A program made the position numbers and the translations under genes. Under the pieces are notes generated by a model. That model saw only the letters and a list, made by a program, of their open reading frames with translations, was not told where the DNA came from and did no database searches. A stretch of DNA of 40,411 bases from Bacillota bacterium (GTDB lineage: Bacteria > Bacillota > Sulfobacillia > JAJYWN01 > JAJZPE01): positions 1 through 40,411 of the forward strand of contig DASXUT010000020.1 of assembly GCA_036504675.1 (NCBI GenBank). Direction: 5' to 3'. Below, in pieces: positions 36,724-40,255 of the stretch. Within the stretch, counting starts at the first letter, position 1; every line of letters starts with the position of its first letter.

Positions 36724-36787
36724 CACGAAGGAAGAACAAATGGTCGAAAAGTGACGAACGGTTGCAGGCCCAGACACGAAGGAAGAA
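36724..36787 (+). repeat. 13-base direct repeat upstream of the histidine kinase gene
   Basis: CACGAAGGAAGAA occurs at 36724–36736 and at 36775–36787, 51 bases apart. It may be a paired regulator site for the kinase gene or incidental purine-rich sequence. The surrounding 36703–36864 stretch is less GC-rich than the rest of the window; no clear promoter is seen. Confidence 0.45.
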
Positions 36788-36864
36788 TCCGTAATCTCGG
36801 CAAAAATGAGTCTTCTTGTAACCCTGTGAATGCGAAACAGTGCCTTCGGAAGGAGTCCTCGCGG

Positions 36865-38508
36865 ATGAACAGTCGGCAATGCGATTCCGGAATCAACGGC
36901 GTGGGAAGGATTCCCTGGGGCAGCCACATAGGGCTACTGTACGAGACCAAGGATGAGCTTATCGATCTCCTGGTTCCATACTTCTCGGCCGGGCTCGAAG
37001 AAAACGAGATGTGCGTCTGGGTAGTCTCCGAACCCCTTACCCCAGAGATCGCTTTGGACGCTCTCATCGCCATGCGCCCCGCGGTGAAGAGAGGGCTGCT
37101 CGAAGGCCGGATACGGATCATTGACTATGCCGAATGGTATCTACCGGACGGTGTTTTCCGAGCCTCGCGGGTCGCCGACGGTTGGGTCGAACTCGAGAAA
37201 CAGGCGCTCGCCTCGGGGTTTCGTGGCCTGCGGGTGGCCGGGAACACATCGTGGTTGAACGGTCAGGTGTGGGACGACTTCATGAGCTACGAAGAGACGC
37301 TATACGGAAAGCTGGACAAGTACCGTATCGTCGCCCTGTGTTCCTATCAAGCAACCGGTCTCACCACCTGGCAGAAGTTCGAAGTCTTCAAGAACCATCA
37401 GGTGATCCTCATCCGGGACAGTGGGGAATGGCGTTGCATCTGGAATCCCCACGTCAAGGCATCGGAATGGGAAGCGATGTTCCAAGACCTGTCGGAAGCG
37501 GTCTTGTTGGCTGACGACACCGGGGAGTTGATCGCCGCTAATCATGAAGGATTGTCAATCCTCGGACTTACCTCAGTTGACCAGTTTCCGCGCCACTATG
37601 CCGCCGCCACTCTGCCGGGCTTGTTCTTCGGCTCAAGTCAGCCTTTGGAGCCGGGCCCATGTCGTGATCGGCCGGCTTGCTTCCGCAACCATTTGGGGCG
37701 AGAGCTTGACCTCGTCGTCTCTGTTTCGGACACCCGACGTCTCTCGGGCAGTCCAGGTCGACACCTCATTGTTGCCACAGACGTATCAGAAATCAGAAGG
37801 CTTGAGAGGGCCAAAGACAGCTTCATGCAAGTCGTCAGTCATGAACTCAGAAACCCTCTGCAGGTAGTCAGGGGCTTGGTGCAACTCACCCAGTATAGGT
37901 ATGCCGGCATTTTGCCGGAAAAGGGCGTCGATACCCTGAGAAGACTCGACACCCAAGTCACCGACCTTGCTCGCCTCGTTGAAGATATCCTGACCGCCTA
38001 TCGGCTTGACAAAGGGGAGTTTCCAATCAGCCTTGGCCTCTTCGGTCTGGCCGATTTGGTCACCGATGTCGTCTCCACTTATACCGCTAATGGGTCACAC
38101 GAATTGATTACCGAGACCTACGGTTCGAATTCGGTGAGCATCCTGGTCGATGGATTTCGGGTCAAGCAGATCATCTCGAACTTGCTGAGCAATGCCTGCA
38201 AATACAGCGAAGACGGCCAGAGAATTTGGGTCAGAACACGGATCGGGGCCGACCATGTGCAGGTCATGGTCGAAGATGAGGGAATCGGCATCCCCAGAGA
38301 CCAGCTGGAGAAGATCTTCGAAGGGTTCTATAGGGCTGACAACGTCAGCCAGTGGAAGACCGGGGGAATAGGCCTTGGGCTGTACATCAGTCGCAACCTT
38401 GCCCGGAGGATGGGAGGCGACCTGTGGGCGGAGCAAAACCCAGGCGGTGGAACCACAATGGTGATGGAATTGCCACTGCAGCAAGGGTCGGAAAAGCAAC
38501 TGGCGTAG
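36865..38508 (+). CDS. Sensor histidine kinase with N-terminal MEDS domain and PAS-like region
   Basis: The 547-residue soluble protein has a MEDS (DcmR-type sensory) domain at residues about 15–175 (GSHIGLLYETKDELIDLLVPYF, EENEMCVWVVSE, IDYAEWYL, SWLNGQVWDDFMSYEETL), then a PAS-like segment (about 200–312). A complete kinase core follows: H-box with phosphoacceptor H326 in SHELRNP, N-box N443 in NLLSNACKYS, G1 DEGIGIP and G2 GIGLGLYIS. MEDS domains occur in methanogen and methylotroph regulators such as DcmR and are thought to sense small hydrocarbon derivatives. ATG at 36865 follows GGAAGGAG (36848–36854). There is no membrane segment and no adjacent response regulator. Codon use is less GC-biased than in the neighbours, suggesting later acquisition. 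Confidence 0.88.
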   Translation: MNSRQCDSGINGVGRIPWGSHIGLLYETKDELIDLLVPYFSAGLEENEMCVWVVSEPLTPEIALDALIAMRPAVKRGLLEGRIRIIDYAEWYLPDGVFRASRVADGWVELEKQALASGFRGLRVAGNTSWLNGQVWDDFMSYEETLYGKLDKYRIVALCSYQATGLTTWQKFEVFKNHQVILIRDSGEWRCIWNPHVKASEWEAMFQDLSEAVLLADDTGELIAANHEGLSILGLTSVDQFPRHYAAATLPGLFFGSSQPLEPGPCRDRPACFRNHLGRELDLVVSVSDTRRLSGSPGRHLIVATDVSEIRRLERAKDSFMQVVSHELRNPLQVVRGLVQLTQYRYAGILPEKGVDTLRRLDTQVTDLARLVEDILTAYRLDKGEFPISLGLFGLADLVTDVVSTYTANGSHELITETYGSNSVSILVDGFRVKQIISNLLSNACKYSEDGQRIWVRTRIGADHVQVMVEDEGIGIPRDQLEKIFEGFYRADNVSQWKTGGIGLGLYISRNLARRMGGDLWAEQNPGGGTTMVMELPLQQGSEKQLA

Positions 38509-39320: not shown

Positions 39321-39366
39321 TCCCCTGCTTGCCGGGAGATCGGACGGAGCCGCCGCGGGCAAGACA

Positions 39367-39393
39367 AAAGCCCGGCCTGGGCCGGGCTTTTTC
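39367..39393. terminator. Bidirectional rho-independent terminator
   Basis: AAAGCCCGGCC (39367–39377) pairs with GGCCGGGCTTT (39380–39390). T-runs are present in both directions (CTTTTTC on plus, CTTTTGTC on minus). It lies exactly between the convergent QueG-like gene and the thioredoxin-fold selenoprotein gene. Confidence 0.9.
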
Positions 39394-39412: not shown

Positions 39413-40129
39413 CTACTTCGCTTCATCCACCGCTTTCTGGACCCATTCGGCGAAGGTCTTCTCCGGCACCGAGCCTTCGAATTCGACCTTCGTGTCTCCC
39501 TGGCGGATGACCACCTTGGGCACCGCATAGACGCTATTCTCCTGCGACCATTCGGGGAATTCGGCGGCCTCGATCACCGAGGCGTGAACCTTGTCGCTCT
39601 CCATGGCCATCTCATGAGCCAGCCGCGCCGCGGCCGGACAGTGCGGTCACGTAGGGGTGACGAAGACGTCGATCCGGACGTCCTTCGTCAGCCCTTGCAG
39701 CATGTCCTTGGTCGGCTGGGCCAGCCTGGTCTGCTCCTTGGACACATCCATCAGGTCGGCGACCAGCACCGAAAACTCCATCCCGCCCGGGAGCCCGTAG
39801 AAGCGCACCCCGCGATCCTTCCCCTGCGAGTCGAGAAGGACCATCGCCGGGACCTTCTCGATTCCGTACTTCGCGGCCGCCGCCCCATCCTGGCTGAGGT
39901 CATGGATCTCCACCTTCAGCTTGGACGACAGACCCTCGAGCTCTCTGGTCAGGTCGGCGGCGGTCTGGCAATACGGGCAGCCCTCATCCGGCTCGGTCTG
40001 GGCTTCGCCGGTCGCACCGTCCTTGGCTTCCTGTAACCGCGTGAATAGGAGCAGGCTGACCTCGCCCTTGAACTCGTCGCCGAAAAGCTTTTCGAGGTAA
40101 GCCCGGTCCTTCTCCTGAATCAAAGGCAC
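39413..40129 (-). CDS. Two-domain thioredoxin-fold protein (protein disulfide oxidoreductase-like), probable selenoprotein with UxxC
   Basis: Read through an in-frame TGA (39649–39647), this frame gives 238 residues. The N-terminal thioredoxin-like domain has C51-P-Y-C54, a loop rich in Glu/Gly just before it, and the cis-Pro segment KVPAMVLLD. The second domain begins VRIDVFVTPT, then U161-P-H-C164, PAAARLAHEMAMESDKV, and ends with a second cis-Pro segment YAVPKVVI. TGA thus falls exactly on the first cysteine of a CxxC site in a family normally reading TPTCPxC. Homology continues on both sides and a SECIS-like hairpin follows. GTG at 40129 is chosen: GAGGTGA lies seven to eight bases upstream and the family starts near there. 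Without Sec decoding the gene would be split in two. Expected role is thiol-disulfide or persulfide redox chemistry in the cytoplasm. Confidence 0.88.
39619..39649 (-). promoter_or_regulatory. Selenocysteine UGA codon and bacterial SECIS-like hairpin
   Basis: On the minus strand the UGA (39649–39647) is followed by CCGGCCGC (39637–39630), a three-base loop GGC (39629–39627) and GCGGCTGG (39626–39619): eight pairs with one G–T. The loop starts with G and begins 17 bases after UGA. A short apical loop starting with G at about 16–37 bases is the known bacterial SECIS layout bound by SelB. High local GC content makes chance hairpins easier, so the UxxC context carries most weight. Confidence 0.75.
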
Positions 40130-40194: not shown

Positions 40195-40210
40195 ATACCC
40201 CAAGGGGTAT
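40195..40210. promoter_or_regulatory. G-tract palindrome resembling a CsoR/CstR-family operator
   Basis: ATACCCC (40195–40201) and GGGGTAT (40204–40210) form a perfect inverted repeat with a two-base centre. Palindromes of the form TACCCC–GGGGTA are typical targets of CsoR-family repressors, including copper-sensing CsoR and persulfide-sensing CstR. It lies about 10–25 bases downstream of the expected transcription start of the selenoprotein gene, suited to steric repression. Confidence 0.65.
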
Positions 40211-40226: not shown

Positions 40227-40255
40227 AGTGTATCAGCCCGCGCCCGCTCAGTCAA
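40227..40255 (-). promoter_or_regulatory. Sigma-A-type promoter of the selenoprotein gene
   Basis: On the minus strand TTGACT (40255–40250) and TACACT (40232–40227) are separated by exactly 17 bases, matching five and four of six consensus positions. Transcription would start near 40220, about 90 bases before the GTG start codon. Confidence 0.75.

What the first reader, a model, noticed from the sequence alone, without database searches (positions are those of the whole stretch)
39413..40129. Probable unannotated selenoprotein: thioredoxin-fold protein with U-P-H-C active site
Seen directly: two same-frame open segments on the minus strand are separated by one TGA. The residues around it, VTPT-(TGA)-PHCPAAARLAHEMA, place TGA at the redox cysteine of the second thioredoxin-fold domain. 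A hairpin with a 3-base G-starting loop begins 9 bases after TGA, with its loop 17 bases downstream. Established knowledge: Sec replaces Cys in UxxC redox proteins, and bacterial SECIS hairpins lie just downstream of UGA. Automated pipelines would report two truncated genes. A two-domain protein with CPYC in the first domain and UPHC in the second may be a new or rarely described Sec family member.
Basis: partly seen in the sequence, partly recalled or inferred. Interest (0 to 1): 0.88.

Follow-up and report, generated by a model that had tools for sequence, protein, structure and literature searches.

The report
Selenocysteine-containing protein disulfide oxidoreductase gene
The gene really does appear to read one stop codon as the rare amino acid selenocysteine in a sulfur-handling redox protein, but this selenoprotein family has been on record since the 2000s; the fresher clue is a repressor site in front of it that ties it to thioredoxin reductase and a sulfur- or copper-sensing regulator.

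Summary
Observation confirmed. Window 40129-39413 (-) is one 238-codon gene with an in-frame TGA at codon 161, in the UPHC active site of the second thioredoxin fold. It is a strong member of NCBIfam TIGR02187, protein disulfide oxidoreductase (PDO). Thirteen other genomes of the phylum also carry TGA at that codon; 15 genes carry Cys. A bSECIS-type hairpin follows, stronger than in Cys relatives and than in 98.7% of synonymous recodings. The genome has selA, selB, tRNA-Sec(UCA) and selD, and selD itself carries TGA.

It is not a new family. Reviews list TIGR02187 with UxxC as "homolog of AhpF N-terminal domain", and a 2006 survey places it in Carboxydothermus and Symbiobacterium.

Added here: a perfect CsoR/CstR-type operator (ATACCCCTTGGGGTAT) between promoter and start. 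The genome has five perfect sites (about 0.1 expected); the others precede cstR-trxB, a ferredoxin-thioredoxin operon, ccdA-tlpA-csoR and an FmdB/DUF302 operon. Such sites recur upstream of PDO in other bacteria. I infer that PDO and TrxB form an NADPH-driven relay against persulfide or disulfide stress, paralleling archaeal SurR-Pdo-TrxR. The effector (persulfide or copper) is unproven.

The parts
39413..40129 (-). Seleno-PDO gene (GTG start, TAG stop), 238 residues with Sec at 161
   Evidence: (TIGR02187 E 1.5e-67, 227 bits against cut-off 185)
39647..39649 (-). In-frame TGA (Sec161) of the UPHC motif
   Evidence: TGA in 14 genes, TGC/TGT in 15 relatives
39619..39637 (-). bSECIS-type hairpin ccggccgc-GGC-gcggctgg, 8 bp, loop 17 nt after UGA
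   Evidence: -13.9 kcal/mol; 1.3% of synonymous recodings do as well
39968..39979 (-). CPYC motif (residues 51-54) of the first thioredoxin fold
   Evidence: missing in some relatives
40227..40255 (-). Promoter-like TTGACT-17-TACACT with TG before the second hexamer
   Evidence: 1 found, 0.3 expected
40195..40210 (.). Perfect palindrome ATACCCCTTGGGGTAT, CsoR/CstR-type operator, just downstream of the promoter
39366..39391 (.). Terminator-like inverted repeat AAAAGCCCGGCCCAGGCCGGGCTTTT after the gene

Best explanation
A selenocysteine-containing protein disulfide oxidoreductase of family TIGR02187. UGA at codon 161 is decoded as Sec by SelB and tRNA-Sec(UCA), guided by the hairpin just downstream. 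Sec161 is the attacking residue of the C-terminal UPHC redox site. The gene is its own short transcription unit, probably repressed by a CsoR/CstR-family protein at the palindrome over the transcription start. Shown: gene structure, Sec/Cys pairing, Sec machinery, hairpin, operator and its recurrence. Inferred: Sec insertion itself, reduction by the TrxB that shares the operator, and a role in reducing persulfides, polysulfides or protein disulfides when reactive sulfur (or copper) relieves repression. The confidence given is for the selenoprotein call; I put the shared CsoR/CstR-family control at about 0.8 and the reactive-sulfur role at about 0.4.
For: TIGR02187 above cut-off; nearest solved structure Pyrococcus PDO 1a8l, whose TPTCPYCP aligns with TPTUPHCP. 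TGA in 14 genes and Cys in 15 at one column that is invariant otherwise; further TGA forms in named genomes such as Tepidibacillus, Desulfosporosinus and a Ktedonobacter MAG. bSECIS hairpins: Sec genes mean -9.9, Cys genes -4.4 kcal/mol, rank test p 2e-5; window gene beats 98.7% of synonymous recodings. selA and selB adjacent, tRNA-Sec(UCA) on the same contig, selD with its own TGA in GUGCK. Operator: 5 perfect sites in the genome, about 0.1 expected; 9 of 9 perfect sites in about 716 kb of PDO loci lie within 650 bp upstream of PDO.
Against: No protein or expression data. Fold energy of the region is ordinary, and the alignment gives little covariation because hairpin registers differ. The Sec relatives are partly close kin, so p-values are rough. 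One Sec relative (L022) has only a weak hairpin under the same rule.
Confidence: 0.94

Rival explanations
1. Pseudogene or sequencing error: TGA is a nonsense change or a miscalled TGC/TGT in an ordinary Cys PDO.
For: One base separates TGA from a Cys codon; the genome is a draft in 199 contigs.
Against: 13 other genomes carry TGA at the same codon; a codon-shaped hairpin follows; the reading frame after TGA is conserved; the Sec machinery is complete.
Confidence: 0.03
2. UGA is read as another amino acid (genome-wide code change) rather than Sec.
For: None beyond the open frame.
Against: tRNA-Sec(UCA), selA, selB and selD are present; the selA and selB matches contain no in-frame TGA; the second TGA gene found is SelD at its known Sec site.
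Confidence: 0.01
3. The operator serves a Cu(I)-sensing CsoR, so the seleno-PDO belongs to a copper response rather than a reactive-sulfur response. (A rival about regulation only; it is compatible with the selenoprotein call.)
For: The sequence matches type 2 CsoR operators (ATATACCCCTNAGGGGTATAT in Streptomyces, PMC3902906); a CsoR-like protein with a Cys-His-Cys pattern follows ccdA-tlpA.
Against: A second regulator, with Tyr in place of that His, sits directly behind a perfect site and in front of trxB; no copper pump or chaperone was seen at the five sites; neighbours are redox and sulfur genes, including a rhodanese in L086.
Confidence: 0.3

Closest known systems
TIGR02187 selenoprotein, 'homolog of AhpF N-terminal domain' (C. 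hydrogenoformans ABB15282.1, Symbiobacterium; PMC9312934, PMC1794560)
   Same: Family and UxxC motif
   Different: Only the lineage; here the motif is UPHC, also found in relatives L023 and L027
Pyrococcus furiosus PDO (1a8l) and other archaeal PDOs reduced by thioredoxin reductase
   Same: Two thioredoxin folds, two CxxC sites, TPTCPYCP aligned with TPTUPHCP; TrxB often adjacent in relatives
   Different: Cys instead of Sec; archaeal control is by SurR
SurR-Pdo-TrxR system of Thermococcales (PMC12162507)
   Same: Pdo under a sulfur-responsive regulator and paired with TrxR
   Different: Here the predicted regulator is of the CsoR/CstR family, unrelated to SurR (my knowledge)
CstR persulfide regulons of Firmicutes (PMC10318464, PMC5480029)
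   Same: Operator type, regulator family, redox and sulfur genes
   Different: Members described there include rhodaneses, sulfite exporters and sulfide:quinone oxidoreductases; no paper held contains both CstR and selenoprotein

Membership tests
TIGR02187 protein disulfide oxidoreductase | Score above the curated cut-off over the whole length | tested here: met
   227 bits against 185, residues 5-232
TIGR02187 protein disulfide oxidoreductase | C-terminal [C/U]PxC site | tested here: met
   invariant in the 20-sequence alignment and in all 29 genes compared
Bacterial selenoprotein | In-frame TGA aligned with Cys in homologues | tested here: met
Bacterial selenoprotein | bSECIS: stem 4-16 bp, loop 3-9 nt, G in the first two loop bases, 16-37 nt from UGA | tested here: met
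   8 bp, loop GGC, 17 nt
Bacterial selenoprotein | selA, selB, selC and selD in the genome | tested here: met
Bacterial selenoprotein | Sec present in the protein | not testable with these tools
   needs mass spectrometry or 75Se labelling
CsoR/CstR-family regulon | TAC/GTA inverted repeat with G/C tracts in the promoter | tested here: met
CsoR/CstR-family regulon | A family regulator in the genome whose own promoter bears the site | tested here: met
   C65:20942-21175 with a perfect site 30 bp before its start
CstR (persulfide sensor) proper | Responds to persulfide, not to Cu(I) | not testable with these tools
   Tyr in place of the CsoR His is only suggestive; no NCBIfam CstR model matched

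The most novel reading that the evidence does not exclude
A CstR-type persulfide sensor controls a selenium-dependent depersulfidation relay, NADPH to TrxB to seleno-PDO, in this lineage. The PDO family (Sec and Cys forms) would be a widespread bacterial reactive-sulfur defence, independently wired to a sulfur-responsive repressor as in Thermococcales.
Probability: 0.35. Interest if true: 0.5.

Novelty: new member of a known kind. Interest (0 to 1): 0.3.

Why it matters
As a selenoprotein it is one more instance of a listed family. The operator gives that family, which the selenoproteome lists I read carry only as a bioinformatic prediction, a directly testable job: partner of thioredoxin reductase in a CsoR/CstR-controlled sulfur or copper redox response.

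Tried and rejected
Rfam scan of the window: no family, so no SECIS support from Rfam. RNAalifold and pair counting on the Sec alignment showed little covariation because helix registers differ; replaced by a constrained hairpin test against synonymous recodings. The first genome-contig search with the single protein found nothing; the alignment search worked. Tree of 99 PDOs: Sec and Cys forms are interspersed, 9 label changes, at least 3 forced by well-supported branches, many forks weak, so no single origin is claimed. Two one-mismatch operator matches (C85, C173) were not counted: about 4 are expected by chance. The second sites in relatives G190, G264 and G373 showed no regulon gene nearby, so the background is not zero. 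NCBIfam could not type the two regulators. Structure prediction was not run because solved PDO structures already cover the fold.

Full report
WHAT IS THERE. The minus strand of window 40129-39413 holds one gene of 238 codons: GTG start, TAG stop, one in-frame TGA at codon 161 (39649-39647). A ribosome-binding-like GAGGTGATGGAG precedes the start, and the start agrees with relatives beginning MPLL/MAYL. The protein matches NCBIfam TIGR02187 (PDO_seleno_TRX, protein disulfide oxidoreductase) at E 1.5e-67, 227 bits against a cut-off of 185, and the solved PDO 1a8l at 6.6e-48. In the profile alignment the TPTCPYCP of 1a8l falls on TPTUPHCP. Each half has a thioredoxin fold: CPYC at residues 51-54 and UPHC at 161-164.

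IS THE TGA REAL. In a draw of 398 genomes of the phylum, 58 have a match. Read through TGA, 14 of the 29 genes examined (this one included) have TGA at exactly this codon and 15 have TGC or TGT. The column is otherwise invariant and the sequence after it is conserved. A second TGA reported in one relative (L026) looks like its ordinary stop codon. Named genomes add further TGA forms, among them Tepidibacillus decaturensis, a Desulfosporosinus MAG and MAGs labelled Bryobacteraceae and Ktedonobacter. The window genome has selA and selB side by side, tRNA-Sec with anticodon UCA on the same contig, and selD. selD has its own TGA in LTKLTSKAGUGCKIGP, the UxxK site listed for Sec-containing SelD.

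THE HAIRPIN. Nine nt after TGA an 8-bp stem begins with loop GGC, 17 nt from UGA (39637-39619). The published bSECIS rule is loop 3-9 nt, stem 4-16 bp, G in the first two loop bases, 16-37 nt spacing (PMC13188914). Scored by that rule, the window gene reaches -13.9 kcal/mol and only 1.3% of 300 synonymous recodings do as well. The 14 Sec genes average -9.9 and the 15 Cys genes -4.4 kcal/mol (rank test p 2e-5; related sequences, so rough). Several Sec genes show the same 7-bp stem with loops GUC, GUA or GUU, and two others the stem CCGUGC/GCACGG. Unconstrained folding is not exceptional (z +0.41), and alignment-wide covariation is weak. I therefore rest on the constrained test and the Sec/Cys contrast.

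IS IT NEW. No. PMC9312934 lists 'Homolog of AhpF N-terminal domain (Grx-like domain protein), TIGR02187, UxxC, ABB15282.1', citing Kryukov & Gladyshev 2004. PMC13188914 repeats it among confident predictions. PMC1794560 counted it in 2006 in Carboxydothermus hydrogenoformans and Symbiobacterium thermophilum. A tree of 99 PDOs intersperses Sec and Cys forms (9 label changes; at least 3 forced by well-supported branches; many weak forks), so Sec and Cys have probably swapped repeatedly.

THE PROMOTER. A sigma-70-like promoter (TTGACT-17-TACACT) lies at 40255-40227. Just downstream is the perfect palindrome ATACCCCTTGGGGTAT (40195-40210). It matches the type 2 operators of the CsoR family: the Streptomyces consensus is ATATACCCCTNAGGGGTATAT (PMC3902906). 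ATACCC-N4-GGGTAT occurs perfectly five times in the 3.28-Mb genome; about 0.1 is expected from base composition (P about 1e-7) and the reversed control gives 0. The five sites precede: this PDO; a CsoR-family regulator (C65:20942) followed by thioredoxin reductase; a ferredoxin-thioredoxin gene with a ferredoxin-like and a CoA-binding protein; ccdA-tlpA followed by a second CsoR-family gene; and an FmdB-type zinc ribbon protein with a DUF302 protein.

CONSERVATION OF THE LINK. Over 108 PDO loci (about 716 kb) the motif with N4 or N5 occurs perfectly nine times, every time within 650 bp upstream of PDO (p 7e-10); with one mismatch, 15 of 22 (p 5e-11); reversed control 0. The 650-bp limit was chosen after seeing where sites fell; with 350 bp the p-value is 4e-5. 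In L024 the regulator lies between the site and PDO or overlaps it. In L086 a rhodanese lies between site and PDO (named from its sequence, not by a family search). In L077 and L091 the order is site-PDO-trxB. L116 (Ktedonobacter MAG, Sec form) holds a regulator, the site, a CoA-binding protein, seleno-PDO, TrxB and DUF302 in one cluster, which reproduces in one place most of what is scattered in the window genome. TrxB is adjacent or near in several other PDO loci.

MECHANISM. Shown by sequence: a Sec-PDO and a shared operator with TrxB and a CsoR-family regulator. Established elsewhere: archaeal PDOs take electrons from thioredoxin reductase (PMC7278568); in Thermococcales pdo is repressed by the sulfur-responsive SurR, and TrxR-Pdo reduces SurR in vitro (PMC12162507); CstR proteins sense reactive sulfur and repress rhodaneses and related genes (PMC10318464); thioredoxin-like proteins reduce persulfides (PMC6196236). 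Inferred: reactive sulfur releases a CstR-type repressor, and NADPH-TrxB-seleno-PDO then reduces persulfides, polysulfides or disulfides. The regulator beside trxB has Tyr where CsoR has its copper-binding His (the fingerprint is from memory), which favours a sulfur signal. The genome also has a Cys-His-Cys CsoR, so copper is not excluded.

VERDICT.

Noticed in passing
window 40195-40210; genome sites C65:21325, C125:17141, C196:11413, C196:30178: Five perfect CsoR/CstR-type operators mark a small redox regulon that includes thioredoxin reductase and two CsoR-family regulators.
   Followed up: yes
L116 2712-6232: A Ktedonobacter-labelled MAG contig clusters a CsoR-family regulator, operator, CoA-binding protein, seleno-PDO, TrxB and DUF302.
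   Followed up: partly
L020, L041-L045: Relatives that lack the N-terminal CxxC but keep the C-terminal [U/C]PxC, so the Sec-bearing site seems the indispensable one.
   Followed up: no
L084 and L118: Two genomes labelled Tepidibacillus decaturensis differ: Sec in one PDO, Cys in the other, a recent Sec/Cys switch or a mislabelled genome.
   Followed up: no
L084 and L118 upstream of PDO: A His-rich protein lies between the operator and PDO (L084), or in a similar operator-led unit (L118); its role is unknown.
   Followed up: no
window 36751-38508 (+): Histidine kinase with a MEDS sensory domain near the seleno-PDO end of the window.
   Followed up: no
G008, G055, G094, G183: Several genomes of one genus in the same class carry further PDO-like loci that also contain TGA.
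   Followed up: no
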